In this document: piece after piece, positions 19,307 to 64,000 of the stretch
How the letters are laid out: each line of letters opens with the position of its first letter
How positions within the stretch are numbered: the first letter of the stretch is position 1
From: a virus
Strand: one strand, 5' to 3'
DNA length: 64,000 bases
IMG/VR virus record: IMGVR_UViG_3300005563_000030
Span: 61,102 to 125,101 of that record
Notes under the pieces: model-generated
Told to the model about the DNA's origin: nothing
What the model saw: the letters and a program-made list of their open reading frames with translations, nothing else
Database searches by the model: none
Position numbers and translations under genes: made by a program

Positions 19307-19382
19307 TGGTAGCTACGGTGAGATTTGAACTCACACTAAATAGTTTCTAAGACTATTGCCTCTCCCATTGGGCTACGTAGCC
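19307..19382 (-). tRNA. tRNA with Leu anticodon TAG, short variable arm
   Basis: Acceptor GGCTACG / CGTAGCT, anticodon stem ATAGT / ACTAT, loop CTTAGAA, T-stem GTGAG / CTCAC, discriminator A and an encoded CCA. Variable loop 5 nt (class I). Begins immediately after terminator 19390-19420. Confidence 0.87.
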
Positions 19383-19389
19383 ATAAAAT

Positions 19390-19420
19390 AAAAAACCCCC
19401 ACTTATGAATAAGCAGGGGG
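19390..19420 (-). terminator. Intrinsic terminator before tRNA block 2
   Basis: Minus strand CCCCC..CTTA / TAAG..GGGGG hairpin followed by TTTTTTATTTT, abutting the TAG-anticodon tRNA. Same placement as the terminators before blocks 1 and 3. Confidence 0.8.
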
Positions 19421-19446
19421 TAAACTAAAAACGGAAAAAAGTATCT

Positions 19447-19530
19447 TTATATTCCGACAATAAGCCCCCCTGCCACAGGATAACTGAGACTAGATAAATA
19501 GGAGAGTAAATATTGCTTCACGAATTTCAT
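19447..19530 (-). CDS. Leader mini-ORF, 27 aa, hydrophobic C-terminus
   Basis: ATG at 19530 is 4 nt past the promoter box. The frame starts MKFVKQYLLSYLSS and ends AGGLIVGI before the terminator at 19420. Hydrophobic enough to be a small membrane peptide, or else a leader peptide. Confidence 0.5.
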   Translation of the reverse strand: MKFVKQYLLSYLSSLSYPVAGGLIVGI

Positions 19531-19534
19531 AACA

Positions 19535-19566
19535 CGAAGATAGGAAAACTTTTTCAATTTTCCAAA
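19535..19566 (-). promoter_or_regulatory. Host-type promoter P2, tRNA block 2
   Basis: Minus strand TTTG (19566-19563), 20-nt spacer, TATCTTCG (19542-19535), one mismatch to TAnnTTTG. It overlaps the 3' end of the zinc-ribbon gene 19554-19700. Confidence 0.65.
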
Positions 19567-19700
19567 TTTTCATTTATTGAATAAGTACGATCACATAAAT
19601 CGCAGTAATAAACTGGTCCTAGATTTTCTCCGAACACTCCAATCTCATCTATAATTATGAATTGTTCATTACATTCAGGACATCTGTTTTCTGATTTCAT
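19554..19700 (-). CDS. Small zinc-ribbon protein, 48 aa
   Basis: ATG at 19700, 3 nt after the end of tRNA-Ala. Two CxxC knuckles (CPECNEQF and YYCDLCDRTY) define a mini zinc ribbon, a fold seen in RNA polymerase- or tRNA-interacting proteins. The longer upstream frame runs through tRNA-Ala and is rejected. The only protein gene of normal type inside the array; function unknown. Confidence 0.65.
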   Translation of the reverse strand: MKSENRCPECNEQFIIIDEIGVFGENLGPVYYCDLCDRTYSINENLEN

Positions 19701-19703
19701 AGT

Positions 19704-19772
19704 GGACACAGTGGGAATCGAACCCAAAAGTTCTCCTTGCAAGGGAGACTGCCTACCGTTGGCATCTGGCCC
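19704..19772 (-). tRNA. tRNA-Ala (TGC)
   Basis: Anticodon stem TCTCC / GGAGA, loop CTTGCAA, T-loop TTCGATT. Acceptor GGGCCAG pairs with CTG-GTCC if one T is bulged. Confidence 0.85.
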
Positions 19773-19778
19773 AGAAGT

Positions 19779-19850
19779 AGGAAGTCTGAGAATCGAACTC
19801 AGGAGTCCACTTTGTAAGAGTGGCATATTAAACCTCTGTATGAACTTCCT
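19779..19850 (-). tRNA. tRNA-Val (TAC)
   Basis: Acceptor AGGAAGT / ACTTCCT, anticodon stem CCACT / AGTGG, loop CTTACAA. Confidence 0.92.
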
Positions 19851-19854
19851 ATGT

Positions 19855-19926
19855 CGCTGAGGGAAGAGTCGAACTTCCAGTCTTACACGTATCAGGCGTC
19901 TGCGTTAACCATTACGCTACTCAGCG
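19855..19926 (-). tRNA. tRNA-Ile (GAT)
   Basis: Acceptor CGCTGAG / CTCAGCG, D-stem GCGT / ACGC, loop CTGATAC (anticodon GAT), T-loop TTCGACT. Confidence 0.9.
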
Positions 19927-19930
19927 GGTT

Positions 19931-19999
19931 GGCTCTAAGGGGGTTGAACCCTTATCCTTCTCGTTATGAGCGAGCTGCTCCACCTTTGAGCTAAGAGCC
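19931..19999 (-). tRNA. tRNA-Met (CAT), second copy
   Basis: Acceptor GGCTCT / AGAGCC, anticodon stem CTCG / CGAG, loop CTCATAA. Together with the copy at 15828 the phage has two CAT tRNAs; one could be an Ile tRNA read after lysidine modification. Confidence 0.88.
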
Positions 20000-20007
20000 G
20001 ATATGTA

Positions 20008-20076
20008 CTCTCGAAGGGTTTCGATCCCTCTTCTACACCTTGAAAGGGTGTCATCCTAGCCACTAGACGACGAGAG
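20008..20076 (-). tRNA. tRNA-Glu (TTC)
   Basis: Acceptor CTCTCG / CGAGAG, anticodon stem ACACC / GGTGT, loop CTTTCAA. T-loop ATCGAAA has A at position 54. Confidence 0.9.
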
Positions 20077-20126
20077 CTGGTGTACAGACTATCACTGACC
20101 TTGGTAACTGACTTTCACAGATTTTG

Positions 20127-20198
20127 TGCGCTACTGGGGAGTCGAACCCCACCCCTCTGATTGGAAGTCAGATAGACTACCGAAATCCTTGTAACGCA
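20127..20198 (-). tRNA. tRNA-Gly (TCC)
   Basis: Acceptor TGCGTTA / TAGCGCA, anticodon stem TCTGA / TCAGA, loop CTTCCAA, T-stem GGGG / CCCC. A 50-nt gap without a tRNA separates it from tRNA-Glu. Confidence 0.92.
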
Positions 20199-20205
20199 TA
20201 TAAGA

Positions 20206-20277
20206 AGAGCTGGAGGGATTCAAACCCCCGACGTTCTGTTTAGAAAACAGACATTCTGTTCCCTGAATTACAGCTCT
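20206..20277 (-). tRNA. tRNA-Arg (TCT)
   Basis: Acceptor AGAGCTG / CAGCTCT, anticodon stem TCTGT / ACAGA, loop TTTCTAA. Reads AGA/AGG, codons common in AT-rich phage genes. Confidence 0.92.
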
Positions 20278-20279
20278 GA

Positions 20280-20352
20280 GGACTAGGAGCGAGTCGAACG
20301 CTCATGTTCCCGCTTCGTAGGCGGGAGCTCTATCCAGTTAAGCTACCAGTCC
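20280..20352 (-). tRNA. tRNA-Arg (ACG)
   Basis: Acceptor GGACTGG / CTAGTCC, anticodon stem CCCGC / GCGGG, loop CTACGAA. Second Arg tRNA, for CGN codons if A34 is deaminated by the host. Confidence 0.92.
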
Positions 20353-20362
20353 TTATTTATGT

Positions 20363-20432
20363 ACCCCCGCACGGTAACGATCCGTGTTCTACTGGTTAAA
20401 AGCCAGTAGCTTCACCTTAAAGCTTCGAGGGT
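20363..20432 (-). tRNA. tRNA-Lys (TTT)
   Basis: Acceptor ACCCTCG / CGGGGGT, anticodon stem ACTGG / CCAGT, loop CTTTTAA. T-stem CACGG / CCGTG closes loop ATCGTTA, with A54 and T58 exchanged relative to normal. First tRNA of block 3. Confidence 0.88.
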
Positions 20433-46354: not shown

Positions 46355-46846
46355 ATGCAAAAGAAAACGAATAAGCTATATTTTGCTTACGGTTCAAATA
46401 TGAATCAGGAACGTCTTGAAGGTCGCGTAGGTCCGGTAATAAAAATCGGAAAACACGTTCTCAGACGTTGGAAGCTCGCGTTCAATTGCGGGTATGCTAA
46501 CAATAGATTCGCTAACATTATTATGGGTGCAGAAGGCGCTGTAGAATATGTAGAGGGCGTCCTATATGAACTGACACCCAGACAAATGCGAATGTTAGAT
46601 AACTTTGAAGGCTACCCACTGTACTATCAAAAGATGGTATTCCCTCTGAATGAAAGTGCAATAGGTAATAGCAAAGAAGTTATGTACGCTTATGTTTGCT
46701 TCAACCCGAATTACGTACCCAATCCAAAAGTAAAGCCTACGGAAGAGTACATAAATCACATATTAAAAGGTGTTGCGGATAACGAATTGACAACAACCTT
46801 GTGGCAACTCAGACGTATGCGTTATAAAGGTGAAATTCAATTTTAA
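46355..46846 (+). CDS. Gamma-glutamylcyclotransferase-like (AIG2/GGCT) protein 1
   Basis: 163 residues. LYFAYGSNMNQERL (8-21) is the GGCT signature loop; MLDNFEGYPLYYQK holds the catalytic Glu and following Tyr. Family members release 5-oxoproline from gamma-glutamyl amines or peptides. A second homologue lies at 54527, in the amidoligase cluster; this one is separated from it by 8 kb. Confidence 0.8.
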   Translation: MQKKTNKLYFAYGSNMNQERLEGRVGPVIKIGKHVLRRWKLAFNCGYANNRFANIIMGAEGAVEYVEGVLYELTPRQMRMLDNFEGYPLYYQKMVFPLNESAIGNSKEVMYAYVCFNPNYVPNPKVKPTEEYINHILKGVADNELTTTLWQLRRMRYKGEIQF

Positions 46847-49090: not shown

Positions 49091-49334
49091 TAACGAAGCA
49101 TTTGTAGCACCAGCTAAACGATGGGCTGAACTTCACCTTGAAGTTGCAGCTTACGTAGATAAAAAACCATTATATATGGCTTCTACTGAGCAGATAGAAT
49201 TTGTGTTAAAGAAGTTTGCTCAAGCGCATGTACAAAAAGCGCTTAAAGAAGCTTCAGTATATGGCTGCCTAAGAGAAGACACTTTTGGACCAGAAGACAT
49301 CTTAAATTGTTATCCACTAGAAGATATTAAATGA
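49074..49334 (+). CDS. Hypothetical protein, 86 aa
   Basis: Starts MKTLSDNEAFVAPAKRWAEL; ends NCYPLEDIK. Overlaps the primase start by 4 nt. Function unknown. Confidence 0.6.
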   Translation: MKTLSDNEAFVAPAKRWAELHLEVAAYVDKKPLYMASTEQIEFVLKKFAQAHVQKALKEASVYGCLREDTFGPEDILNCYPLEDIK

Positions 49335-50344
49335 TCGACTTTGGCTCAGTCATACCAACACACGACATTACCACTGAATTCATCTTATCTAAACTAGATG
49401 AAAGTCATATATTTTCATATTACTTCGGGTATTTTGAGCTTAACAAATTATATCCTTCTAAATTAAGAGCTGATAAACATCCCTCTACCTCTTTCTTCAT
49501 CAGTACCAAAACTGGTTCTATTCTATATAAGGACTTTGCAAACAATAAAGTATACAACTGCTTTAATTTCGTTGCAGCACTATTTAATACTTCCTTTATA
49601 GAAGCTATGAATATTATTGCTAGAGACTTTGGTCTAAGCAATATTAATACAGCAAAACCAGAAGCTATTGATGTCCTCAAGAATGTCGATTTCGACAAAC
49701 AAATTAAAGCTCAAACAATTATTCAAGTAATTCCCAGTGTGTGGGAATCGCATCACATTCAATATTGGAAAGAATATCACCTAGACATTCAGAAACTCAA
49801 AGCTAACAACGTCTATCCTGTCAAGAAGTTATTTGTGAATAAGAGAGAGTTTGTAATAGATCCTCTCTGTTTTGCATATCTTGTAAGAAGCGATGATGAT
49901 GGCTATCATGAGTATCTGAAAATATATCAACCGTTAAGAACAACAACCACTGGAAAGTGGATAAACAATGTTCCCATTACGGTGCCATTCGGCTTATATG
50001 AACTTAAACCTAGCAACCACATTGTTGTAGGTAAAGCTAAGAAAGACGAAATGGTATTACAACATTTTTTCACATCTACAATTGGAACTCAAAATGAGAG
50101 TGAGGCTGCTCTATCTGATGTATTGGTTTCTCGATTTCATAACGAATTTCCTCGACGAACGATCATCTGGGATGCCGATAGTGCAGGAGTTGAGAGCTGT
50201 AAAAAATTCAATGATCGTGGTTTTGGCTACTTTAACACTCCTGCTTATCTGGTTGATAGAGGAATAAAAGATGTGTCCGATTACGTAAAAGCATTCGGGA
50301 TGAAAGCTCTCGAAAGATTACTAAAATCAAAAGGTATAATATGA
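49331..50344 (+). CDS. TOPRIM primase (DnaG-type)
   Basis: 337 residues. N-terminal region (KLYPSKLRADKHPSTSFFIS, TGSILYKDF) matches the DnaG start after its zinc finger; TOPRIM part near residues 233-285 includes HIVVGKAKKDEM and IIWDADSAGVESC (DxD). A separate zinc finger was not seen. Makes RNA primers for replication (family knowledge). Overlaps neighbours by 4 nt. Confidence 0.8.
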   Translation: MIDFGSVIPTHDITTEFILSKLDESHIFSYYFGYFELNKLYPSKLRADKHPSTSFFISTKTGSILYKDFANNKVYNCFNFVAALFNTSFIEAMNIIARDFGLSNINTAKPEAIDVLKNVDFDKQIKAQTIIQVIPSVWESHHIQYWKEYHLDIQKLKANNVYPVKKLFVNKREFVIDPLCFAYLVRSDDDGYHEYLKIYQPLRTTTTGKWINNVPITVPFGLYELKPSNHIVVGKAKKDEMVLQHFFTSTIGTQNESEAALSDVLVSRFHNEFPRRTIIWDADSAGVESCKKFNDRGFGYFNTPAYLVDRGIKDVSDYVKAFGMKALERLLKSKGII

Positions 50345-52286: not shown

Positions 52287-52997
52287 ATGATCGAGAAACT
52301 TAAATCGTGCTTTGAAGAAGGATGGTGGCAGAAATTGTCACCATTTTTTGTTAATGGAGGTTTTGACAATATAGCTCGGACCCTTAATGCTCAGAAGAAT
52401 ACTGGGCTTGAAGTAACTCCCGGATTTGATAAAGTTTTTAGAGCATTCAAAGAATGTCCTTATGACAAACTCAAAGTGGTAATGATGGGACAAGACCCAT
52501 ATTATCAAAAAGGAGTGGCTGATGGTCTTGCGTTCAGTGCTAAGAACCACGTGTTTGATCCACCTGCTTCTTTTAAGCTTATGTCTAATGCTATCGAACG
52601 AGAAGTTTACGATGGCTTTGCGATAGGCTATAACGAAGAATATGCGTATGCTGATCTTACTCGATGGGCTAATCAAGGAGTGTTGTTAATAAATTGTGCT
52701 CTCACTACAATAGTAGGAAAGACACAACAACACATGGATTTATGGGCTCCTTTCATGCGTCATTTGTTTAATACCCTCAGAAACGACAATACAGGCATTA
52801 TTTACATTCTCTTAGGAAAGGACGCTAAACAATGGAAAGTGTTAATTAACCCTGTCCGTAACCACCTCTTTACAGTAACCCATCCTGCTTCTGTAGCTTA
52901 TACAGGAAGGAATGTATGGGATTCTGAAGGAGTTTTTTTAAACACAAATAAGCTTTTGGAACAAATGAATGGTCCTGAAGCAAAAATTCTTTGGTAA
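52287..52997 (+). CDS. ung: Uracil-DNA glycosylase (family 1 type)
   Basis: 236 residues. Active-site loop MGQDPYYQKG (residues 67-76; Asp70), and a late HPAS loop at about 199 in place of the usual HPSP. Removes uracil from DNA. crAss-like phages commonly encode one. Its stop overlaps the next start (TAATG). Confidence 0.9.
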   Translation: MIEKLKSCFEEGWWQKLSPFFVNGGFDNIARTLNAQKNTGLEVTPGFDKVFRAFKECPYDKLKVVMMGQDPYYQKGVADGLAFSAKNHVFDPPASFKLMSNAIEREVYDGFAIGYNEEYAYADLTRWANQGVLLINCALTTIVGKTQQHMDLWAPFMRHLFNTLRNDNTGIIYILLGKDAKQWKVLINPVRNHLFTVTHPASVAYTGRNVWDSEGVFLNTNKLLEQMNGPEAKILW

Positions 52998-53629
52998 TGA
53001 AAAGGAAAATTTATGTTGTAGGTGGCTCTAATGAGTATGCCAACTGGATGCAAGGTGAAATCGTCCATAATATGGAAGATGCTGATCTTGTATTATTTAC
53101 TGGTGGAGAAGATGTAACACCTTTATTATATGGTGACCCTAAGCATCCTTTCACAGGTAACAACTATGACCGCGATCTACGCGAAACAGAAAAGTTTAAG
53201 AAAGCCCAAGAACTAGGTAAACACGTTATTGGTATCTGCCGTGGTAGTCAGTTTACCTGTGCTATGAGTGGTGGTCGATTAGTTCAACATCAGGAAAACC
53301 CACATCTCTATCATCAAATTCGTACATCTGACGGTAAGCAGATAACCATTAGCTCAACTCACCACCAAGCAATGTTCCCTTATGACATGAACAAGGAAGA
53401 TTATAAAATCCTTGCATGGACAAAGGATATGCTACGCTATCATCAGGATGGAAATGGTCAGGAAATGATTAACAACCGTGATCTTGGTGAAGTAGAAATC
53501 TGCTATTTCCCTAAGACCAAAGTGTTAGGTATTCAGGGTCATCCTGAGTTCATGGACAAAAAACGTTATCCTGATACCTTTGATTATTTGACAAACCTGT
53601 TAGATAATCATATGGAAGACAAGCTTTAA
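52997..53629 (+). CDS. Class I glutamine amidotransferase / gamma-glutamyl hydrolase-like
   Basis: 210 residues, start at ATG 52997. Nucleophile motif VIGICRGSQ (Cys81) and a late GIQGHPEF (catalytic His), with LFTGGEDVTP near 33-42. This matches the C26-type GATase 1 that hydrolyses gamma-glutamyl amides. First gene of the amide-chemistry cluster. Confidence 0.85.
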   Translation: MKRKIYVVGGSNEYANWMQGEIVHNMEDADLVLFTGGEDVTPLLYGDPKHPFTGNNYDRDLRETEKFKKAQELGKHVIGICRGSQFTCAMSGGRLVQHQENPHLYHQIRTSDGKQITISSTHHQAMFPYDMNKEDYKILAWTKDMLRYHQDGNGQEMINNRDLGEVEICYFPKTKVLGIQGHPEFMDKKRYPDTFDYLTNLLDNHMEDKL

Positions 53630-53640
53630 AAACCATTATT

Positions 53641-53901
53641 ATGCTTGAAAGAATAATAAGAATCCTTGTTGTGATATTCGCAACATGGGGATTCATGGGT
53701 TTTTTAAATCTTGGTCTTGAAGGTCAATATTTCTACAGCATCACATTACCTACTGGTGGATTTATTGGCTGTTGTATTCTCTTTAGTGTTATAATTGCTA
53801 ATGACGCTAGGAAAAATGAAGAAAAAAAGTCTGTGGATTATCCACAAGTTCCTAAAGGTGAAGACCAAATTGGGGGAAGAGATAATAACCCATCAAACTA
53901 A
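53641..53901 (+). CDS. Two-helix membrane protein, 86 aa
   Basis: Helices IIRILVVIFATWGFMGF and GGFIGCCILFSVIIA, then a charged tail. Overlaps the next gene by 86 nt. Confidence 0.65.
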   Translation: MLERIIRILVVIFATWGFMGFLNLGLEGQYFYSITLPTGGFIGCCILFSVIIANDARKNEEKKSVDYPQVPKGEDQIGGRDNNPSN

Positions 53902-54085
53902 AAGTACATCTGATATTGGCTTTTACTGGAGAGGGGTTATATCTGAAGATGTTATTAAAGAAATCTTAAGTAACAAACAATTCCAAAAATGGAAGCGTGG
54001 TGAACAAACAGAATTCATCAAACATTTTTCTATTCAGGAAAGGAAAGATATTTTAAAACATAATAATAAAAAGAAAAATGGCTAA
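53816..54085 (+). CDS. Basic hypothetical protein, 89 aa
   Basis: Start at ATG 53816 (MKKKSLWIIHKFLKVKTKLG), overlapping the previous membrane gene; end overlaps the next by 8 nt. Contains GFYWRGVISEDVIKEILSN. Function unknown. Confidence 0.6.
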   Translation: MKKKSLWIIHKFLKVKTKLGEEIITHQTKSTSDIGFYWRGVISEDVIKEILSNKQFQKWKRGEQTEFIKHFSIQERKDILKHNNKKKNG

Positions 54086-54497
54086 TTTAAAACAATACCG
54101 CCATAAAAGATCAGCAATAATTGCTGTATACGACTCTCGTAATTTCTATCAGCATTCAACAAATCCTGATATGAAGATTCCTGTTGTAGTAGTAGAAGGT
54201 TCTACTGAATGGGAAGAGATTGTGCCACCAAAACCTGTTATTGACTTTTATGGTACTGAACTTGATGCTAAATTATTGCATTATAAAGTTCTATTACTTA
54301 AAGACAATACTACTATGGTATCTAACGGTTTAGGTAATGGGCCTGAAGAATCTAAAGTTCTTACAGCTTTTAAAGATTACGATGAAGCCTGCGAGTTTCA
54401 AAGAATATACGTATTCTTGAAGAAGCAGAAAGAGCTTCTAACTACTGCTGGTGGTAACGCATCACAATACCTGAAAAACCTACTGAAAACTCTGTAA
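54078..54497 (+). CDS. Hypothetical protein, 139 aa
   Basis: Starts MANLKQYRHKRSAIIAVYDS; beta-rich middle (IPVVVVEGSTEWEEI). Not recognised. Confidence 0.65.
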   Translation: MANLKQYRHKRSAIIAVYDSRNFYQHSTNPDMKIPVVVVEGSTEWEEIVPPKPVIDFYGTELDAKLLHYKVLLLKDNTTMVSNGLGNGPEESKVLTAFKDYDEACEFQRIYVFLKKQKELLTTAGGNASQYLKNLLKTL

Positions 54498-54526
54498 TTA
54501 ATTTAAAACTATCTTAATTTTTAGAT

Positions 54527-54922
54527 ATGGAAAAACAATTTGAAGGCAAATTATACGCCGTGTATGGAACTCTTCGTAAAGGTCTTGGTAATTACAAACG
54601 TTATCTTGATAACGATGATTGTAAATACTTAGGTACTCAGAAATTGAGAATACCTTATAAAATGGTAAGCTTGGGTGGATTCCCCGGTCTTGTCTGGACA
54701 AATCCCTATCACTCACAAATCACCATTGAAGTATTCAATGTTACTAGTCCTGATATTGAGAAGCAACTCGATATGCTCGAAGGTTATCCAGACTTCTATG
54801 AGAAAACCACAATTAATACCCAGTGGGGTGAAGCAACTATTTACTACCTTCACTCTGAGCGGTATGCAAATTATCCTGTTGTCGAAAGTGGCGATTGGGT
54901 AAACCGAGTAAAACAAGTTTAA
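54527..54922 (+). CDS. Gamma-glutamylcyclotransferase-like (AIG2/GGCT) protein 2
   Basis: 131 residues. LYAVYGTLRKGLGN (9-22) and MLEGYPDFYEK (Glu in the active site). This is the compact YtfP-type. Directly before a COOH-NH2 ligase, so it may open or recycle gamma-glutamyl products. Confidence 0.85.
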   Translation: MEKQFEGKLYAVYGTLRKGLGNYKRYLDNDDCKYLGTQKLRIPYKMVSLGGFPGLVWTNPYHSQITIEVFNVTSPDIEKQLDMLEGYPDFYEKTTINTQWGEATIYYLHSERYANYPVVESGDWVNRVKQV

Positions 54923-54932
54923 ATAACAAACA

Positions 54933-55742
54933 ATGAAAAAGAAGTTAATTTCAAAACCGACTATTGGCGCAGATATTGAAGTGTTCTTAAAAAACAAAAG
55001 AACTAATAAGGTAGTATCTGCTGAAGGAATCATCAAAGGTAGCAAACACGACCCATTTAAGTTCATGGACGGTAATCCATATTTTGCTACATCTCTTGAT
55101 AATGTAATGGCTGAATTCTGCATTGAGCCAGCCACTACTAAGAAGAAATTCCGTGCCGGTATTGAGGTTGCTTTGAATTACATTACAGACAGCATTCCAA
55201 AAGAACTAAGCATCTATGCTTTCCCTTCTGCTAAGATTGATGGAAAGTACCTGCAAACTGCAAATGCTCAATTGTTTGGATGTGATCCGGATTATAATGC
55301 ATGGCTGGACGGTGTTATGAATGCTGCTCCTGCTGCTAACGGATCTGTAATTCGTAGTTGTGGTGGTCATATCCACGTAGGATATAACAAACCTGATGAA
55401 GAAATAAGCATGAAATTAATTAAAGCCATGGACATCTTCATTGGTCTGCCTTCTGTTCTACAAGAACCAGATAATGACCGCAAAAAGCTTTATGGTAAAG
55501 CTGGTGCATTTCGTTTCAAAAACTATGGCGTAGAATATCGCACTGTTTCCAATTATTATGTAAATTCTGCGGAACTCAGCCACTGGGCCTTTGATAATAC
55601 ATTAGCCGCTATCAACTTTGTTAATGACCAAAATCAGATAAGCAAAGATGAAGCTAATGGTATTCAAATGGCTATTAACACCGCTGACAAGAAGTTAGCG
55701 AAAACAATGTGTAAATACTTCGGCGTTCAATTAGCCGCATAA
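54933..55742 (+). CDS. COOH-NH2 ligase, phiEco32 type (amidoligase 1)
   Basis: 269 residues. IGADIEVF (11-18), CGGHIHVGY (143-151), LYGKAGAFRFKNYGVEYRTV (186-205) and SNYY. This is the glutamine synthetase-like fold predicted to join a carboxyl and an amino group with ATP (family COOH-NH2 ligase type 2). Substrate unknown. Confidence 0.85.
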   Translation: MKKKLISKPTIGADIEVFLKNKRTNKVVSAEGIIKGSKHDPFKFMDGNPYFATSLDNVMAEFCIEPATTKKKFRAGIEVALNYITDSIPKELSIYAFPSAKIDGKYLQTANAQLFGCDPDYNAWLDGVMNAAPAANGSVIRSCGGHIHVGYNKPDEEISMKLIKAMDIFIGLPSVLQEPDNDRKKLYGKAGAFRFKNYGVEYRTVSNYYVNSAELSHWAFDNTLAAINFVNDQNQISKDEANGIQMAINTADKKLAKTMCKYFGVQLAA

Positions 55743-55771
55743 CCTAATTTTCAACCTATTAACTAGATTTT

Positions 55772-56101
55772 ATGTCAGTATCATCAACAAAAAAGAAGAA
55801 AGCCAAGATAATGAAGTTCCCAACTGATTGTTGCGCCTTGTGTCAGCTTTCTATCCAGAACTCTCACACCAAAGAAGAAATTAAACAAGCCTTAAAAATC
55901 CTACGCGATCAGTCTACTATGCAGGACTGGTGGGGAACAGGTAAACAGTATGGTCAGAAAGCTATATTCGTTATTACTACTCCCAATGAAGCAGAACTGG
56001 CTGATAACCTGAAAGCTGTAGGTTTCCGTCCTACTTTCAACTTTGAAAGACGCAAAGGTTATCCTGGCGGTCAGTTAACAATGTGGTGCATTAATCTGTA
56101 A
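55772..56101 (+). CDS. Hypothetical protein in the amide cluster, 109 aa
   Basis: Starts MSVSSTKKKKAKIMKFPTDC; CCALCQLSIQNSH and WGTGKQYGQKAIFVITTPNE. Could be a small carrier or substrate for the ligases; no support beyond position. Confidence 0.6.
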   Translation: MSVSSTKKKKAKIMKFPTDCCALCQLSIQNSHTKEEIKQALKILRDQSTMQDWWGTGKQYGQKAIFVITTPNEAELADNLKAVGFRPTFNFERRKGYPGGQLTMWCINL

Positions 56102-56117
56102 AATTCAACTAACAACA

Positions 56118-57083
56118 ATGGGTATTACAATTCTGGTAGGAAAAGATGGTCGTCCATCAATGAAGAAAGTATTCGCTTTTATGAAAGGCAACGATAACAA
56201 GCTTGTCATAAGACGTAAGATTCTTAAAAGCGGTAAACAATGGTTACGCAGCTACGAGGGAAATAATTCTGATAAATTTGTAAAACGTCCAATCAATGAG
56301 TTATCTTTGGCAGATAAAAAGGTTATACGGTGGGGAAACCGAATTGAGGCTGAAACAAATAAGGGTACGATCGTCTACAATAAGTCTGAAGCTATTGAAC
56401 GAGCTACCAACAAAAAACTCTCTCGTGAAATCTTCGCCAAAGAAAAAGTCAGAACTCCAAAAGCTGTAACACCAGAAAACATTACAGATGCAGACTACCC
56501 AGTTATCGCTCGCCCTAGCACGCATGCAAAGGGCAAGAACTTTATCATCCTTAAAACCAAAGAAGAATTTCAACAGCATTACGCGGCGAATGAGAAGAAT
56601 GGATGGTATTATTCTGCTTTTGTCAACAAGACAAGAGAGTTCCGAGTGCATTGTGCTCACGGGAAAATACTTGGCGTCATGGAAAAGGCTAAAGGAAAAG
56701 ATAAAATCGCTTGGAACCGAGCCGTTACTGGAGAACCTTTTATCCGAGTGGAACAGGAAAAATATCCATTCTCTGTCTGCTTCCAAGCACTCAAAGCTGT
56801 TAAAGCAATTGGCCTCGATTTTAGCGGAGTGGACGTAATGGAGATCATCGAGAATGGTAAGCCTCAGGGTTATGTTCTCGAAGTTAACACCAGTCCAACC
56901 CTTAATAGTTCTGAGTATATCTCTGAACAATATGCAAAGTATTTTGATTGGCTTGGTCGTTCTGATAAGAGACGCGATCATTGGGACTTTACGAAGTTCG
57001 AGAAAGCTGAATCTTTTGCATGGAAACAGTTCCAACTATTAGAAATACAAAATCCCGGTAAAAATGTGCCTAACCAAGGTTAA
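56118..57083 (+). CDS. ATP-grasp ligase, RimK-like
   Basis: 321 residues. Central ARPSTHAKGKNFIIL, REFRVHC and C-terminal YVLEVNTSPTL (about 251-261), with GVDVME before it: the ATP-grasp pattern of RimK-type ligases, which add Glu or other amino acids to carboxylates. Overlaps the next gene by 20 nt. Confidence 0.85.
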   Translation: MGITILVGKDGRPSMKKVFAFMKGNDNKLVIRRKILKSGKQWLRSYEGNNSDKFVKRPINELSLADKKVIRWGNRIEAETNKGTIVYNKSEAIERATNKKLSREIFAKEKVRTPKAVTPENITDADYPVIARPSTHAKGKNFIILKTKEEFQQHYAANEKNGWYYSAFVNKTREFRVHCAHGKILGVMEKAKGKDKIAWNRAVTGEPFIRVEQEKYPFSVCFQALKAVKAIGLDFSGVDVMEIIENGKPQGYVLEVNTSPTLNSSEYISEQYAKYFDWLGRSDKRRDHWDFTKFEKAESFAWKQFQLLEIQNPGKNVPNQG

Positions 57084-57459
57084 TGCCAAGGTTGCAGATA
57101 GAAGTATTTACGTGCTCAAGAGCTCCTATGGTGGAGCTTTTGGGCGCGTATTCATAAGTTCTCTGCAAGCCTTCTGTTATCTAAATGGTAACACTTATAA
57201 GAAGAAGTGGTATGATAAATTCGTTGCTTATTTCAGAAAAAATTTGGAGTGGCAAGTGTTTCATGCCCATGATATAGAAACATCAAAGAGTTATGTCAAA
57301 CAATTTAGTCAGCTTAGTTCAGAAGTTCAATTTGGTATTTTCGTAATACCGCAAGGTACAAAATATTACGAAGGTAATAACGATGACCTTGGCTCTTTTG
57401 CTATAAGGTATTACGGTCCGTTACACCTTGGAAACAAACATTTAATTTTAAATCAATAA
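57064..57459 (+). CDS. Hypothetical protein in the amide cluster, 131 aa
   Basis: Starts MCLTKVNAKVADRSIYVLKS; overlaps the ATP-grasp gene. IPQGTKYYEGNNDDLGSFAI. Fixed position between ligase and amidotransferase suggests an accessory or target role. Confidence 0.6.
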   Translation: MCLTKVNAKVADRSIYVLKSSYGGAFGRVFISSLQAFCYLNGNTYKKKWYDKFVAYFRKNLEWQVFHAHDIETSKSYVKQFSQLSSEVQFGIFVIPQGTKYYEGNNDDLGSFAIRYYGPLHLGNKHLILNQ

Positions 57460-57468
57460 TTGTCAATT

Positions 57469-59973
57469 ATGTGTGGAATATTCGGTTTCAGTGCTAATCC
57501 CGCCATCATGAATAGAACGATGGCTAAGTTAGTTTTAAATAAGATAAAAATTCTTGGTATGTATAACATTGACAGGGGTAAACACTCTTGCGGTTTATAC
57601 ATTAATGACCAAATCATCAAAGGCGTTGATGACTTAAAAATCTTCTCTGATTTTATTGCAAAGAAATGGCTGCCTGATGCTACCAAGAGTGGAAATTACA
57701 CTATCATGGGCCATACTAGAGCTGCTACCGTTGGTTCTCACACTGCTGCAAATGCTCACCCGTTCCTAGTAGATGATCGCTTTGTACTTGCCCACAATGG
57801 TGGTATAAAGAATATCTGGGAGCTATGCGATAAACACGGCGTTGATTATACCAACATCGACGTAGACAGCCATGCACTTGCCCACCTTATATATAAGAAA
57901 GGATTTAAAGTTCTTGAGGAATATAAAGGTTTTGCTGCACTGCTTATGGCTTATCGTGATAATCCTAATATTCTGCACTTCTATCGTGGTTCTTCTAAAA
58001 GATACCAGATGGCTCAAGCAATTGAAGAAGAAAGACCCCTATATTATTTACAAGCGAATGAAGGTGTCTATCTTAGCTCAATTGAAAAGAGCTTAATGGC
58101 TATTTCTGACGAAGAAGCCGATGAGATTCAGATTGTACCTGCTAGTACAGTGTTTACAATCGAAAACGGTCAAGTAAACGAAGATTGTGTTTATATTGAT
58201 CGTGGTGTATCAAACTATGGTATTTATCAAAATACAACTACTTGCGACCCAAAGCGGGTAGGGGTCATAAAAGCTACGAATTCTACCCCAGCGACTGGGA
58301 TAGGTGGAACGATTGGGACTAGCCTTTCTGACTCCAGAAATAACCTCGAAAAAATTGTTCCTGTTATCTGGCATGAAGGCTTACCTAGCCGTATTTCTCG
58401 CTGGAAGTTCAATGAAGGTATAATCTATCATCTAGGGCGTTTCTGGATCGTTGATAATCAAAATATTCGTCCTGCTAATGGCGCTTATTATGCTAACAAT
58501 AAAGGTCGTATAACACCTGACCGTAAACCCAACCGGTTCTTCCTTGACGGAGTTATGATGAAAAACCAGAAGGCTTATGAAATGGCTAAAGTAGATCCTA
58601 ATATAGCCAATCCTAACTGGAACTATATGATGTTCATGAGTAAATATTCTGAATATCCTATATGTGCGACACGTATGGACATTAATAATAAATGTAAAGA
58701 CGTGCCACCTCATTCTAAATATCGTTGGTATGAGAATGAAGCTCAAGTAGGTAATAAGTCCTTCACCCCAATGTTCTCTGATCGCCATTATGCTATTAAG
58801 GAAGGTCTTTTAGATAAGATTATAGCCTCGAAAACAATAGAGAAAGAAGTTCTGATTAATCAGGAATCTCTCGCTGCCGAACGTAAGGCTGTTGAAGACC
58901 TAAAAGCTAAATCTTCTTTAGTAGTTGTTCATGGCCCAAAGTCAGACCTGAAAGAAGAAGGGGAGGCTCGTTTGAACGTTGGTTCTGTTGTTGATGATGT
59001 TTTGGTTAACACCGTTAAACTCTCTGAGTTTATCAAAAAGAACAACTTCAACAACGAACTGCCATTCAAAGATGAGAAAATAAAAATCTTCAAAGGAGAT
59101 GATCTGGATGTAACAACCTTTCACATGAAGTTTGAAAGTGTAGATCAGGCTCTTGAGACATTCACTCGTGAAGAGCAACGTGCTATTCGTTACTTCATAG
59201 CTGATGTAATGACCAGTGATGGCGTATGCAAAGTGTATAACGTGTATGAAGACACAGTGGACATGCAATTCAAAATGTTCTTACAGCTTTGTATAGATAA
59301 TGATGCAACTGTTGTGGATAATTGGAATCAGGATGAGTTCAATGATATTCCACACTATTTAGTCACCGCCAAAAACAATGTAGATGGTTCTTATATTGAT
59401 TATGTTGATAACGAAGAAGTTGAAGATCAATCTTCCTCTTGCTGCTATGTTCCCCCTAAACCTGAAAAGAAGGTAATGGGTGTTCAGCAGGGATGGTTTG
59501 TTATGGACACTGATGAGGCTGAATTGTTAAATGCAGCTAAAGCTAGTGACGATGAAGAACCACCTTTTATTGATCTTGTTTACGAAAGAGAAAAACGTAA
59601 GTTCACAGAGTATATGGGTATTCAAGTATTGGAAGATAATACCGACTCTCAGGAGGTAGATGAGGAAGAACATGGCTTTCGTCTCCAAGAAACGTTCAAG
59701 CCTGTTGCAGACATCTCAAACACTTTTGATGACGATGAAGAAGAGAAGTCAATTGCTTTTGAAGAAACTGTGGATTCACTCTTAAAAGCAAGGGATGAGG
59801 CTGATGCGTTCCAAGCTTTAGTAAATGATGATTTCAGTCAGGAAATCGCTTATACTTTGTATCGCGGTATTGATCCAATTCTACAGGAATTGCAGAATGT
59901 TGCCGAAAAGTACAAAGAAAAGAAGTCAGAAGATTACATTAAACGTAACATTAAAGAAAGAGTTAACTCATGA
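57469..59973 (+). CDS. Class II glutamine amidotransferase with long extension, 834 aa
   Basis: The start is ATG 57469 because it exposes Cys2 (MCGIFGFSANP), the Ntn nucleophile; the in-frame TTG at 57460 would bury it. GHTRAATVG and LAHNGGIKN are the glutaminase loops (within about residues 75-115). After about residue 250 come some 580 residues not of GlmS or GltB type, with acidic tracts (EEVEDQSSSCC, DDDEEEK). Leader TTGTCAATTATG as at 33255. Overlaps amidoligase 2 by 4 nt. Confidence 0.85.
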   Translation: MCGIFGFSANPAIMNRTMAKLVLNKIKILGMYNIDRGKHSCGLYINDQIIKGVDDLKIFSDFIAKKWLPDATKSGNYTIMGHTRAATVGSHTAANAHPFLVDDRFVLAHNGGIKNIWELCDKHGVDYTNIDVDSHALAHLIYKKGFKVLEEYKGFAALLMAYRDNPNILHFYRGSSKRYQMAQAIEEERPLYYLQANEGVYLSSIEKSLMAISDEEADEIQIVPASTVFTIENGQVNEDCVYIDRGVSNYGIYQNTTTCDPKRVGVIKATNSTPATGIGGTIGTSLSDSRNNLEKIVPVIWHEGLPSRISRWKFNEGIIYHLGRFWIVDNQNIRPANGAYYANNKGRITPDRKPNRFFLDGVMMKNQKAYEMAKVDPNIANPNWNYMMFMSKYSEYPICATRMDINNKCKDVPPHSKYRWYENEAQVGNKSFTPMFSDRHYAIKEGLLDKIIASKTIEKEVLINQESLAAERKAVEDLKAKSSLVVVHGPKSDLKEEGEARLNVGSVVDDVLVNTVKLSEFIKKNNFNNELPFKDEKIKIFKGDDLDVTTFHMKFESVDQALETFTREEQRAIRYFIADVMTSDGVCKVYNVYEDTVDMQFKMFLQLCIDNDATVVDNWNQDEFNDIPHYLVTAKNNVDGSYIDYVDNEEVEDQSSSCCYVPPKPEKKVMGVQQGWFVMDTDEAELLNAAKASDDEEPPFIDLVYEREKRKFTEYMGIQVLEDNTDSQEVDEEEHGFRLQETFKPVADISNTFDDDEEEKSIAFEETVDSLLKARDEADAFQALVNDDFSQEIAYTLYRGIDPILQELQNVAEKYKEKKSEDYIKRNIKERVNS

Positions 59974-61484
59974 TCCGCTTTAAAGATAACCCAAATTTAG
60001 AGGACAGAAAAGTGAAAACTGTCCGGGGCTTGACAGAATATAGAAAGAATTGTCGCAACATTCGTGACAAATGGTATGTTAAGGATGAAGACTGTTTCCT
60101 GATAAACGGTAAATGGCATACATATACTTCTAAAGAGATCACGCTGGATCATGAAACAGGTAAGTATAAACCTATTAGTAAAGACCTAGTTTATGGAGTT
60201 GTTGGATTTAAAGAGTCCGACAGCTCTGCTATTCTTGGATATTTTACAGGGAATGTGTATAACAATCTCACTGTAACTATTCCTGAATATGGCAAGGTCA
60301 AAACTGTCAATGAATCTATTCTTCTCCAGAATGGATATATTGAAAGTATTAATAGCGGTGCGTGGCTTCTGAAGAAAAATCTGTCAGCTCGTGATCTTGA
60401 AAGGCTCGACAAGATTGATAGTCAGAAAGTGGCTACAAACAAAGGATATAATATTGAAGACAACAAAGAGGAATTCAAACAGAAAACCGAAGCCTTCAAT
60501 AAATATCCAGTGAAAATATCTGCCGCAGCAATGCGGTATGGTAAGATGCTGAGTGGTGTAACATTTGGCGCAGAAATTGAAACTACTAAAGGTATTGTTC
60601 CAGACCATATTCAAAACCGTACAGGTATTGTAGTATGCAGGGACGGTAGTATCAAAAATGCGGAATATGTCACCGTTCCTATGAACGGAGCCAAGGGTTT
60701 AGTTAATCTAAAATACCTGTCTAGCGAGTTGAGTAAACGAACCACGACAGGTATTGAGTGCAGTTTGCATTTCCATATTGGAAACCTGTCCAAAGACCGA
60801 CTGTTCATCGTGGCTCTGTATGCGCTTGCTTTGCGTATTCAGAATGAGATTTTTATGATGTTCCCATATTATAAAACTAAATGGGAAGGCATAAAACAAA
60901 AGGATTATAATCAGAAACTACGTAAACTCGGAATAGGCTTACTGAAACCCGGGATGAAGAAAGAGGAGTATCAGAAATATGTTGATGAAGCCTATTATCG
61001 AATCTTTACGTGGTTAAATGATGGTGTTCCGCCAGATGATAACTTCAATCGTGTGAACAATCATCACATGAAACAAAACAAGTGGGACAGAAAACAAAGA
61101 TATTTCTGGCTGAATTTCATGAATATGTTCTTTTCAGAACGTAGAACCATGGAATTCCGCCTGCATCACTGTACCTTAAATGGTCAGAAGATGGTGAATT
61201 GGTTGTTTATTTGTAACGCTGTTTGTCAGTATGCAGCTAACCATAGCGATGAAATTCTTTCTAGCGATAAAGCCATCACTCTTGATACGGTGCTGGAACA
61301 CTATAAAGAAACCTTCAAAACGCCACATGGTAAATTCCTTTCTGACTATCTGAAGGCTTATGTCAAAGATAGAAAGGATTATTTTGCTGCTGACGTGAAA
61401 CGTGGTGATTATGTTAGTCAGAAAGAAATGGATGACGACAAACAGTATGTATTCACGTATGAGGGCGTAAGCTGGCTATTCTAA
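59970..61484 (+). CDS. Amidoligase 2 (PF12224-type)
   Basis: 504 residues. The domain starts near residue 190: TFGAEIETTKG (198-208), DGSIKNAEYVTVP, CSLHFHIGN (263-271), MEFRLHHCTLNG (about 393-404). These match the putative amidoligase family related to glutamine synthetase. The N-terminal 190 residues are unknown. Overlaps the amidotransferase by 4 nt, so the two are probably made together. Confidence 0.85.
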   Translation: MIRFKDNPNLEDRKVKTVRGLTEYRKNCRNIRDKWYVKDEDCFLINGKWHTYTSKEITLDHETGKYKPISKDLVYGVVGFKESDSSAILGYFTGNVYNNLTVTIPEYGKVKTVNESILLQNGYIESINSGAWLLKKNLSARDLERLDKIDSQKVATNKGYNIEDNKEEFKQKTEAFNKYPVKISAAAMRYGKMLSGVTFGAEIETTKGIVPDHIQNRTGIVVCRDGSIKNAEYVTVPMNGAKGLVNLKYLSSELSKRTTTGIECSLHFHIGNLSKDRLFIVALYALALRIQNEIFMMFPYYKTKWEGIKQKDYNQKLRKLGIGLLKPGMKKEEYQKYVDEAYYRIFTWLNDGVPPDDNFNRVNNHHMKQNKWDRKQRYFWLNFMNMFFSERRTMEFRLHHCTLNGQKMVNWLFICNAVCQYAANHSDEILSSDKAITLDTVLEHYKETFKTPHGKFLSDYLKAYVKDRKDYFAADVKRGDYVSQKEMDDDKQYVFTYEGVSWLF

Positions 61485-61526: not shown

Positions 61527-61910
61527 ATGGCAAAGAAAGAAAGAGTACCAAAAACAAGATGTTCTGGAACAATGACAGAATCTGCTTTTTGGAGCTGGAT
61601 AAGATCAGCTCTGAGAAGAAGGACAGTCTATTGGAAACCTGTTTCAGAAGTAAAGAAAGACGCACGTAGAGATTACAAAGGCGAAAACAAGCGCCAGAAG
61701 TATGAATATCAGTGTACTTCTTGTCAGAATTGGTTTCCAGATAAAGAGGTCGAAGTAGACCATAAGATTCCCGCTGGGAGTCTTAGAAGTTCTGATGATT
61801 TAAAAGGATTTGTAGAACGTCTTTTTTGCGAAAAAGATGGATTACGAGTTCTTTGCAAAAATTGTCACCAAGAAATTACAAATAATCAAGATGCAGAAAC
61901 CAGAGTATAA
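61527..61910 (+). CDS. HNH nuclease
   Basis: 127 residues from ATG 61527 (MAKKERVPKTRCSGTM). CTSCQNWFP, VEVDHKIPAGSL, LCKNCHQEITNN form the HNH core. Overlaps the next gene by 20 nt. Directly preceded by a strong promoter. Confidence 0.85.
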   Translation: MAKKERVPKTRCSGTMTESAFWSWIRSALRRRTVYWKPVSEVKKDARRDYKGENKRQKYEYQCTSCQNWFPDKEVEVDHKIPAGSLRSSDDLKGFVERLFCEKDGLRVLCKNCHQEITNNQDAETRV

Positions 61911-62991
61911 GCAAGCGGCTGGTATTTCTCAAAGTGCTATCAAGAGATTTCGATCTATGCCCTTAATTAAGTTTAAGGAGCAGTTCATTGATCGAATAAG
62001 CTCTAAGGAGTCTGTCTCTGAAAGTCTTACTTTCGGATCATTAACAGACACGCTAGCTTTTGAACCTGAGTTGGTTAATGACCTATTCTACATACCCCCT
62101 TATGATGTTGAGTTCCCCGGCGATAAGCTAAAAGCTGTTATGGATGCTTCTTATGAGAAGATAGCAGAAATAGTGAACAATAAGCGTCTTTTAAATAATC
62201 AAGGTATGCTCCCAGAAGAGATATACATACCTGATATTTATGAGATGGGTGAGTTCAAAAACACCTTTGTAGACGTCGCTAGAGAGCTTAAATACGGTGG
62301 TGGTAAATGGAGTGCAAACACCATTTATGATAACTGTGCAGGAGCCTATCGCTATTACAGTACGCTTGTAGAAGCTGCCGGTAGAGAAGTTGTTTCATTC
62401 GTGGATAGTGCAAATGCTAATCAGATGGTGAATAATCTGAAGACAAATCCAAGCACAATATCATACTTCGTACAACAACCGGGGGAAACCCTGATATTCC
62501 AACAGGAAATATACGAAGAATATGACTATGAAGGAATCAAAGTCCCACTAAAGTGTGCAGTAGACATCATTAGACTCGTTCATAAGGAGAAGACGGTGTA
62601 TATACCTGATCTTAAAACTACCTACGATGTTAGAGAGTTCAGAGATCAAGCAATTAAGTATGGATATTTAGACCAAGTATCTTTCTATCGTTATATGGTA
62701 GGAAAGTGGTTACAAACATTTAAAGGGGGTGCTTATAAAGACTATGTCATAGCAAACCTTTTTGATATTGTAATTGATCCTATTGTTAAAGTACCGTATA
62801 TCTTCGAGTTCGATGCTGAAGATTTGGACATTATCGAGCATGGTTCAAAGGTCAAAAACATCAAGGGTTGGAGAAATACATTAGACGAGATATGCTGGCA
62901 TATTAAGAATAATGTGTGGACTATACCTAAGGAGTTATTCGAGAACGGTAAAATTAAATTAAAATTCTTCCATGACCAAGAACGAGGTTAA
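61891..62991 (+). CDS. PD-(D/E)XK exonuclease (RecE/Cas4-like)
   Basis: 366 residues, start at ATG 61891 (MQKPEYKQAAGISQSAIKRF). KCAVDIIRL and IPDLKTTYD (Asp/Lys at about 239-241) form the PD-(D/E)XK active site, GSLTDTLAF is near the N-terminus as in RecE/YqaJ-type nucleases. Likely supplies single-strand ends for the Sak4/SSB pathway. Confidence 0.75.
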   Translation: MQKPEYKQAAGISQSAIKRFRSMPLIKFKEQFIDRISSKESVSESLTFGSLTDTLAFEPELVNDLFYIPPYDVEFPGDKLKAVMDASYEKIAEIVNNKRLLNNQGMLPEEIYIPDIYEMGEFKNTFVDVARELKYGGGKWSANTIYDNCAGAYRYYSTLVEAAGREVVSFVDSANANQMVNNLKTNPSTISYFVQQPGETLIFQQEIYEEYDYEGIKVPLKCAVDIIRLVHKEKTVYIPDLKTTYDVREFRDQAIKYGYLDQVSFYRYMVGKWLQTFKGGAYKDYVIANLFDIVIDPIVKVPYIFEFDAEDLDIIEHGSKVKNIKGWRNTLDEICWHIKNNVWTIPKELFENGKIKLKFFHDQERG

Positions 62992-63610
62992 CATTGAAGA
63001 ACTTTTAAGACAAGACTATAAGGTGCCAGAGAGTGTGTTTGACCGGAAACGGACTAAAACAACACACTTTCTGCTCCCTACAGTTTTTCCAAATAGTTCT
63101 TTAACTGGTTCGGAGTTTTTTGTGAATGCTTTTGTTGATGATAACGGCTTCAAACACACACTTGATAGGGTGTTATTCTGCTTGTTCAAAGTTGATGTCC
63201 GGAATCCTAAATGGGTATCATTATCTCAAAAGCTTAAAGCCAAAGGAGAGTTCTTATTAGATTATTTCTGTGGTATACAAGACGGAAGACATCTAATAAT
63301 GATGATATTCAAAATCCCGGACAAGCACCTTAACGAGTATATCCTGTTCTTAGAAGGAAAGTACTCTAAGTTTAGTGAAGATTACAAGAAGCTTTTCCCA
63401 AGAAAAGTGTATAATGAAAATGGCGCTACAATTGATAGTACAATATGGAGTGTCCTTTACAAAACACCGGAGCTGAAGGAGAAGCTAGAGTCATTCTTCA
63501 CTATTAATCCAAATGGAGCTAATCCTACAAGGTTTGATCCTGACGATGAGCTTTGGGGAATTCCTGAACCTAAATTTGAAGTTTATAGACATGCCGAAGG
63601 AAGTGTATAA
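62972..63610 (+). CDS. Hypothetical protein, 212 aa
   Basis: Starts MTKNEVNIEELLRQDYKVPE; overlaps neighbours by 20 nt each. LFKVDVRNPKWVSLSQKLKA. No family recognised; linked to the nuclease by overlap. Confidence 0.65.
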   Translation: MTKNEVNIEELLRQDYKVPESVFDRKRTKTTHFLLPTVFPNSSLTGSEFFVNAFVDDNGFKHTLDRVLFCLFKVDVRNPKWVSLSQKLKAKGEFLLDYFCGIQDGRHLIMMIFKIPDKHLNEYILFLEGKYSKFSEDYKKLFPRKVYNENGATIDSTIWSVLYKTPELKEKLESFFTINPNGANPTRFDPDDELWGIPEPKFEVYRHAEGSV

Positions 63611-64000
63611 TGAAGATTTAATTGCTGAAAGAGTAGCTCAAGAAGCTGCTTTAGAGGATGCAACAGTAAAGCCAAAGACAGGGCTACGTTATGATGCAGA
63701 TAAAGTGCGTCATGATTTGCTTCCTCCCAACGCAATCAATGAACTTGCAAAAGTTCTTACCTTTGGAGCTAAGAAATATGCTCCAAACAACTGGATGAAG
63801 GGTATGGCGTGGAGTCGTATAATTGGTCCATTGAAACGTCACTTGAATGCTATTGAGCGAGGAGAAGATTATGATCCTGAAACAGGACTACTTCACTCAG
63901 CTCACGTCATGTGTAATGCTGCCTTTTTGACAGAGTATTACAAGATTTTCCCACAAGGAGATGACAGACCGACGTTTATGAATAAGAAGTTGCGTATTGG
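63591..64000 (+). CDS. dATP/dGTP diphosphohydrolase-like (DUF5664), cut at right edge
   Basis: At least 136 residues from ATG 63591. GLRYDADKVRHDLLPPNAIN, FGAKKYAPNNWMKG and HSAHVMCNAAFL match the all-alpha phage family annotated as dATP/dGTP diphosphohydrolase. It could shift the dNTP pools. Runs off the window. Confidence 0.8.
   Translation, partial: MPKEVYNEDLIAERVAQEAALEDATVKPKTGLRYDADKVRHDLLPPNAINELAKVLTFGAKKYAPNNWMKGMAWSRIIGPLKRHLNAIERGEDYDPETGLLHSAHVMCNAAFLTEYYKIFPQGDDRPTFMNKKLRI

What the first reader, a model, noticed from the sequence alone, without database searches (positions are those of the whole stretch)
52997..61484. Dense glutamyl/amide-bond chemistry cluster in a crAss-like phage
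Within 8.5 kb lie a class I glutamine amidotransferase-like hydrolase, a GGCT, a COOH-NH2 ligase (phiEco32 type), an ATP-grasp ligase, a class II amidotransferase and a second, unrelated amidoligase, with several small unknown genes between them. A further GGCT sits at 46355. Motifs are visible in each. Comparative work on amidoligases (Iyer, Aravind and colleagues) links such genes to predicted peptide or cell-wall modification, but no product is known. Two ligases, an ATP-grasp and two amidotransferase types together suggest a full make-and-remove pathway: ligases add glutamyl or amide groups, GGCT and GATase remove them. Targets could be peptidoglycan, a virion protein, or DNA bases.
Basis: partly seen in the sequence, partly recalled or inferred. 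Interest (0 to 1): 0.85.

Follow-up and report, generated by a model that had tools for sequence, protein, structure and literature searches.

The report
Known phage amidoligase cassette, crAss-like version
This crAss-like phage carries an intact version of a gene cassette, already known from several other phage groups, that links and removes glutamate-type (gamma-glutamyl/amide) bonds; the cassette is real and strictly conserved, but what it modifies has never been shown.

Summary
Six enzymes lie within 8.5 kb on one strand: a class I GATase (C26/PuuD type), GGCT, COOH-NH2 ligase, RimK-type ATP-grasp, class II GATase and Amidoligase_2. All have intact catalytic residues. A second GGCT lies at 46355.

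The association is not chance. All 33 loci fetched by the COOH-NH2 ligase alone with at least 5 kb on both sides also carry ATP-grasp, GATase II and Amidoligase_2 within 6.5 kb on the same strand. Among 12 crAss-like or related records, five have all four genes and seven have none. GGCT and GATase I are accessory.

It is not a new system. The same cassette is in PaP3, phiEco32 and others, published as a "peptidoglycan modification cassette" with a proposed, untested role in superinfection exclusion. New here are its conserved placement in crAss-like phages (between the primase and exonuclease genes) and structural support: the COOH-NH2 ligase folds like gamma-glutamyl ligases and glutamine synthetase, and the class II protein is a glutaminase domain without a recognisable synthase domain.

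Most likely it performs cytosolic gamma-glutamyl/amide ligation with editing. The best guess at the target is a peptidoglycan precursor; DNA bases are least likely.

The parts
52997..53629 (+). Class I glutamine amidotransferase-like hydrolase (Peptidase C26 / PuuD-like gamma-glutamyl hydrolase), 210 aa; accessory member; overlaps the end of UDG by one base
   Evidence: Pfam PF07722 1.6e-15, PHROG 7218 4.9e-39; C81, H182, E184 invariant in 33 relatives
54527..54922 (+). Gamma-glutamyl(amine) cyclotransferase (GGACT/AIG2 family), 131 aa; accessory member
   Evidence: Pfam PF06094 1.5e-17; catalytic Glu85 invariant
54933..55742 (+). Core: phiEco32-type COOH-NH2 ligase (type 2), glutamine-synthetase/gamma-GCS fold, 269 aa
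   Evidence: Pfam PF14395 1.4e-14, PHROG 3815 4.1e-65; AlphaFold pLDDT 95; Foldseek best PDB hits are glutamate-cysteine ligases, YbdK, glutamine synthetase
56118..57083 (+). Core: ATP-grasp ligase, RimK-type, 321 aa
   Evidence: Pfam RimK 5.1e-06, PHROG 2599 6.3e-25; profile A4 hits alpha-L-glutamate ligase, RimK, cyanophycin synthetase; K99, E174, R176, K190, D239, E255, N257 invariant
57469..59973 (+). Core: class II glutamine amidotransferase (Ntn hydrolase, Cys2), 834 aa; glutaminase domain about 1-243, remainder mostly low-confidence and without a recognisable synthase domain
   Evidence: GATase_6 2.6e-12; PDB profile hits PurF/GlmS; AlphaFold and Foldseek GlmS/PurF/EgtC; C2, R84, N110, G111, D133 present
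59970..61484 (+). Core: Amidoligase_2 ligase, 504 aa, start overlaps the stop of the class II GATase
   Evidence: Pfam PF12224 8.2e-06, PHROG 2443 7.1e-23; G200, E202, E204, D225, S227, E232, H267, H269, E395, R397 invariant
46355..46846 (+). Second, divergent GGCT paralogue, 163 aa, outside the cassette but conserved in the nearest relatives
   Evidence: Pfam 1.8e-10; orthologues in close relatives
52287..52997 (+). Flank: uracil-DNA glycosylase
   Evidence: Pfam UDG 4.4e-10; UDG adjoins the cassette in phi14:2 and cr108_1
49331..50344 (+). Flank: DNA primase; left border of the replication block that holds the cassette
   Evidence: PHROG 12622 2.7e-35
61837..62991 (+). Flank: exonuclease (exonuclease VIII-type PHROG), right border
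   Evidence: PHROG 412 6.5e-16; same position in phi14:2, cr108_1 and L087
55772..56101 (+). Lineage-specific small ORF (109 aa) between the COOH-NH2 ligase and ATP-grasp genes, not a conserved member
   Evidence: no relatives in any fetched locus
57064..57459 (+). Lineage-specific small ORF (131 aa), not a conserved member
   Evidence: no relatives in any fetched locus

Best explanation
This is the crAss-like form of the phage amidoligase cassette known from the phiEco32, LUZ24/PaP3 and RIO-1 groups. The core is four enzymes: COOH-NH2 ligase, Amidoligase_2, RimK-type ATP-grasp and class II GATase; GGCT and the C26-type GATase are accessory. Proposed working: the class II GATase hydrolyses glutamine. 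The ammonia or glutamate, or another amine, is joined by the glutamine-synthetase-fold ligases through a gamma-carboxyl phosphate. The ATP-grasp enzyme adds a further alpha-linked residue. GGCT and the C26 hydrolase cleave gamma-glutamyl bonds, as editing or recycling. The related known enzymes are cytosolic, so the acceptor should be cytosolic. I rank peptidoglycan precursor peptides first (about 0.4; the published proposal, with altered cell wall or superinfection exclusion as the benefit), then host or phage proteins and a soluble gamma-glutamyl metabolite (about 0.25 each), and DNA bases last (below 0.1). Shown here: the module, its conservation, intact active sites and folds. Inferred: the reaction order, the direction of each step and the target. 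That it belongs to the known cassette is about 0.95 certain; the confidence below is for the whole statement with a peptidoglycan-precursor target.
For: Core set in 33 of 33 complete-flank loci fetched by one gene only, all on one strand. All-or-none presence in 12 crAss-like or related records, including G008, which was picked by TerL. Correlated divergence of the core genes (Mantel r 0.52-0.90, no permutation of 2000 reaches it). Active sites invariant. COOH-NH2 ligase model matches gamma-glutamylcysteine ligases, YbdK, glutamine synthetase, PafA/Dop. Class II protein is a glutaminase domain of GlmS/PurF/EgtC type. ATP-grasp closest to glutamate ligases. Same set in PaP3 and phiEco32. Published as a peptidoglycan modification cassette (PMC5498523).
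Against: No substrate has been identified in any paper read here. No Mur ligase or cell-wall gene was seen beside the cassette. It sits among replication genes, not lysis or envelope genes. Loci are partly from related phages and so are not independent; the Mantel correlation also reflects shared phage ancestry. The ATP-grasp gene is the least co-inherited (r 0.52-0.61) and is a divergent one in L006.
Confidence: 0.42

Rival explanations
1. The cassette makes a soluble gamma-glutamyl peptide or amide (for instance a protected amine, a polyamine conjugate or an anti-defence or redox metabolite) and the gamma-glutamyl group is removed later by GGCT or GATase, as in ergothioneine (EgtA/EgtC) or butirosin (BtrJ/BtrG) synthesis.
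For: Fold matches to glutamate-cysteine ligases and EgtC among the class II matches; GGCT/GGACT and C26 enzymes act on small gamma-glutamyl compounds (established knowledge). The broad host range fits a self-contained small-molecule pathway.
Against: No carrier protein, oxidase or transporter is conserved with the core. GGCT and GATase I are often missing. EgtC is not the best match; GlmS and PurF are.
Confidence: 0.24
2. The ligases attach glutamyl or other amino-acid tags to a host or phage protein (RimK-like or Pup-like tagging).
For: ATP-grasp profile matches RimK, which glutamylates ribosomal protein S6; PafA/Dop are among the fold matches; the podovirus-type cassettes carry a conserved unknown 200-aa protein right after the COOH-NH2 ligase.
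Against: That protein is not found in the crAss-like cassettes; no Pup-like tag found; no target known.
Confidence: 0.22
3. DNA base hypermodification with glutamyl or amide groups.
For: The cassette lies inside the replication gene block in crAss-like phages, PaP3 and phiEco32. A P-loop kinase is encoded elsewhere in the genome.
Against: DNA of phage tf, which carries the cassette, is cut by RsaI, HpaI, EcoRV, SmaI and HaeIII (PMC3517423). The phage encodes an ordinary ThyX-type thymidylate synthase. No PurZ. No known modification-pathway gene co-occurs with the core.
Confidence: 0.06
4. A nitrogen-metabolism auxiliary set that simply mobilises glutamine/glutamate nitrogen for the host or phage (as proposed for Phage-ZRK32).
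For: Growth effect with NH4+ reported for a phage carrying such genes (PMC10945688).
Against: The gene set is more elaborate than needed; two ligases plus ATP-grasp are always kept together; the cited effect was not tied to these genes.
Confidence: 0.05

Closest known systems
Phage amidoligase / 'peptidoglycan modification cassette' (RIO-1, phiEco32, 7-11, PA11, tf, LUZ24, PaP3, CW02; PMC5498523; predicted by Iyer et al. 2009 and Hardies et al. 2013, neither of which could be read here)
   Same: Same four core enzymes plus GGCT, same strand, inside the replication block, near primase
   Different: Gene order differs (here COOH-NH2 - ATP-grasp - GATase II - Amidoligase_2; in PaP3 COOH-NH2 - unknown - Amidoligase_2 - GATase II - ATP-grasp - GGCT); class II protein and Amidoligase_2 are longer; no 200-aa unknown protein; a C26 GATase is present
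Cassettes of Cellulophaga phage phi14:2, cr108_1 (Steigviridae) and Leptolyngbya phage Lbo-JY46
   Same: Same core set; in Lbo-JY46 the order is the same as here (GATase I - GGCT - COOH-NH2 - ATP-grasp - GATase II - Amidoligase_2); UDG and exonuclease flank it in phi14:2 and cr108_1
   Different: Position of ATP-grasp differs in phi14:2 and cr108_1; Lbo-JY46 has a second C26 protein and neighbouring pncB and prsA
Ergothioneine EgtA/EgtC and butirosin BtrJ/BtrG gamma-glutamyl add-and-remove chemistry
   Same: GS/GCS-fold or ATP-grasp gamma-glutamyl ligase paired with a class II hydrolase or a cyclotransferase
   Different: No oxidase, carrier protein or product genes; works-like analogy only (recalled from memory, not tested as membership)

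Membership tests
Phage amidoligase ('peptidoglycan modification') cassette | COOH-NH2 ligase, Amidoligase_2, ATP-grasp and class II GATase encoded together on one strand | tested here: met
Phage amidoligase ('peptidoglycan modification') cassette | GGCT and a glutamine amidotransferase-type hydrolase in the same cluster | tested here: met
   GGCT 54527 and C26 GATase 52997; accessory elsewhere
Phage amidoligase ('peptidoglycan modification') cassette | Catalytic residues of all enzymes intact | tested here: met
Phage amidoligase ('peptidoglycan modification') cassette | Location in the replication block | tested here: met
   between primase 49331 and exonuclease 61837
Phage amidoligase ('peptidoglycan modification') cassette | Modifies peptidoglycan and blocks superinfection | not testable with these tools
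   hypothesis only in PMC5498523
COOH-NH2 ligase (glutamine synthetase / gamma-GCS fold) | GS-type fold and conserved Glu/His/Arg residues | tested here: met
   AlphaFold pLDDT 95, Foldseek to 2gwc, 3ln6, 4lnn, 1r8g; E16, E61, H146, H148, R203 invariant
RimK-type ATP-grasp | ATP-grasp Lys, Asp, Glu, Asn residues and profile match to RimK | tested here: met
Class II glutamine amidotransferase with its own synthase domain (GlmS, PurF, AsnB) | Recognisable C-terminal acceptor domain | tested here: inconclusive
   no Pfam or PDB match beyond the glutaminase domain; the remainder mostly low confidence
Crassvirales | TerL, portal and capsid related to crAss-like phages | tested here: met
   TerL hits Lbo-JY46 then crAss-like phages, including Crassvirales families; portal and head PHROGs; formal family not determined

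The most novel reading that the evidence does not exclude
The core four enzymes assemble a previously unseen gamma-glutamyl peptide or amide product (small molecule or protein tag) that acts inside the infected cell, for instance as an anti-defence or host-takeover modification, rather than changing peptidoglycan.
Probability: 0.3. Interest if true: 0.75.

Novelty: new member of a known kind. Interest (0 to 1): 0.4.

Why it matters
A cassette kept intact across unrelated phages (podoviruses of enterobacteria and pseudomonads, Vibrio phages, crAss-like phages), yet not functionally tested in any paper read here, must give a strong benefit. Finding its product would settle an old prediction. Kuravirus-type phages of laboratory E. 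coli (for example Bas92) carry it, so the question is directly testable.

Tried and rejected
Rejected: the small ORFs between the enzymes as cassette members (no relatives, or in the nearest relatives only). Rejected: a Z-base (2-aminoadenine) pathway, although a dATP/dGTP diphosphohydrolase lies at 63513; no PurZ in the record. The original Iyer 2009 and Hardies 2013 papers are not held. Searches for metabolomics of LUZ24 and for butirosin parallels found nothing. The primase scan found one relative only. The value (2e-9) is not used as a probability because four of the five positive records were chosen for having a cassette gene.

Full report
WHAT IS THERE. The window is bases 61102-125101 of a 125,101-base virus record. 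All lie on the + strand: C26-type class I GATase (52997-53629), GGCT (54527-54922), COOH-NH2 ligase (54933-55742), RimK-type ATP-grasp (56118-57083), class II GATase (57469-59973; the listed TTG start at 57460 is probably too early, since ATG at 57469 gives MCGIFG with the catalytic Cys2) and Amidoligase_2 (59970-61484). The class II stop and the Amidoligase_2 start overlap by four bases, and UDG and the class I GATase overlap by one. A second GGCT is at 46355. Active-site positions that are invariant or nearly so in 33 to 37 relatives are all present in the window, as is the catalytic Glu of both GGCTs.

IS IT A CRASS-LIKE PHAGE. The terminase matches Leptolyngbya phage Lbo-JY46 (45%) and then crAss-like phages, including named Crassvirales families; portal and capsid fall in head/packaging PHROGs. 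Its formal family was not determined.

IS THE ASSOCIATION REAL. A scan of IMG/VR with the COOH-NH2 ligase alone gave 46 loci. Over those, the public-phage loci and the MAG loci, the most frequent protein clusters by far are GATase II (61 loci), COOH-NH2 ligase, ATP-grasp and Amidoligase_2 (56 each) and GATase I (48); the next cluster is in 36. In 33 loci with at least 5 kb on both sides, all 33 hold the four core genes within 6.5 kb; all copies of the core genes are on the same strand as the ligase; GATase I is near in 24 and GGCT in 9 at BLAST sensitivity. Among 12 crAss-like or related records, the four core profiles hit the same five records and none of the other seven. Four of those five had been chosen for a cassette gene; the fifth, G008, was found by its terminase and has the same order of core genes with the same flanks. 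Core-gene divergence is correlated between genes (Mantel r 0.80-0.90 among COOH-NH2 ligase, GATase II and Amidoligase_2; 0.52-0.61 with ATP-grasp), which fits inheritance as a unit but also reflects phage ancestry. In a one-genome-per-species collection the ligase appears only on short MAG contigs of at most about 50 kb, which I read as phage sequence.

ACCESSORY AND LINEAGE-SPECIFIC GENES. GATase I was not detected in the nearest relatives (L006, L007, G008), and ATP-grasp in L006 is only about 23% identical. The small ORFs of 86, 109 and 131 aa have no relatives, and the 139-aa one only in near relatives. Podovirus-type cassettes have instead a conserved unknown protein of about 200 aa directly after the COOH-NH2 ligase (43 loci).

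FOLDS. The COOH-NH2 ligase model (pLDDT 95) matches plant glutamate-cysteine ligase, bifunctional glutathione synthetase, glutamine synthetase, YbdK and, weaker, the Pup ligase/depupylase; most of these activate a glutamate gamma-carboxylate (established knowledge). TM-scores are modest (0.4-0.6), so this is a fold assignment, not a substrate. The class II protein has a confident glutaminase domain (residues 1-243) matching GlmS, PurF, AsnB and EgtC; the rest is largely low confidence and matches no synthase domain. ATP-grasp is closest to alpha-L-glutamate ligase/RimK and cyanophycin synthetase. The two amidoligases are not detectably related by profile comparison apart from the HxH motif region.

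HOW IT MOST LIKELY WORKS. Shown: intact enzymes of these folds in a conserved module. Inferred: glutamine hydrolysis by GATase II feeds ammonia or glutamate to two ligases that form gamma-carboxyl amides; ATP-grasp adds an alpha-linked residue; GGCT and GATase I cleave gamma-glutamyl bonds. The target is open. The peptidoglycan-precursor proposal is the published one; protein tags and soluble metabolites are close rivals. DNA bases are unlikely: DNA of phage tf, which carries the cassette, was cut by five ordinary restriction enzymes (PMC3517423).

WHAT IS KNOWN. PMC5498523 describes a seven-gene 'peptidoglycan modification cassette' with the same enzymes in RIO-1-like phages and lists phiEco32, 7-11, PA11, tf, MR299-2, LUZ24, PaP3 and CW02, citing Iyer et al. 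and Hardies et al. 2013; those originals are not held. PMC3890496 and PMC10580990 list parts of it. Records of PaP3, phiEco32 and Bas92 show the same set ending next to primase/helicase. The search for amidoligase with crAss found no relevant paper, so description of the full cassette in crAss-like phages, with its place between primase and exonuclease, may be new, although phi14:2 and cr108_1 have several of the genes annotated singly. Named hosts seen are Gram-negative bacteria; the lists shown are samples, so this is only a lead.

VERDICT. A real, conserved and probably functional cassette, a new member of a known kind in a crAss-like phage; its substrate remains an open and testable question.

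Noticed in passing
window 15228-20432 (- strand): Array of about 23 tRNA genes covering most amino acids; the record also encodes a tRNA nucleotidyltransferase (L053:1756-2493).
   Followed up: no
window 63513-64000: dATP/dGTP diphosphohydrolase (PF18909, 3e-34), a family I associate with Z-base phages, but no PurZ homologue in the record.
   Followed up: partly
L002 (Leptolyngbya phage Lbo-JY46) 1464-5673: Nicotinate phosphoribosyltransferase (pncB) and PRPP synthase (prsA) lie directly upstream of the cassette, suggesting NAD salvage genes next to it. This cyanobacterial-host record has a crAss-like terminase.
   Followed up: no
window 46355-46846: Second GGCT paralogue conserved next to replication genes in the nearest relatives; only 21% identical to the cassette GGCT.
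   Followed up: partly
L050:3769-4371, L081:6303-6920, L005:8648-9226: Unknown protein of about 190-205 aa directly after the COOH-NH2 ligase in most podovirus-type cassettes (43 loci share the L050 family; the PaP3 and phiEco32 proteins in the same slot did not join it when used as queries).
   Followed up: partly
L004:7150-8139 and 8149-9051; L002:3142-3885 and 3889-4647: Tandem paralogous unknown proteins of about 250-330 aa inside or beside the crAss-like cassettes.
   Followed up: no
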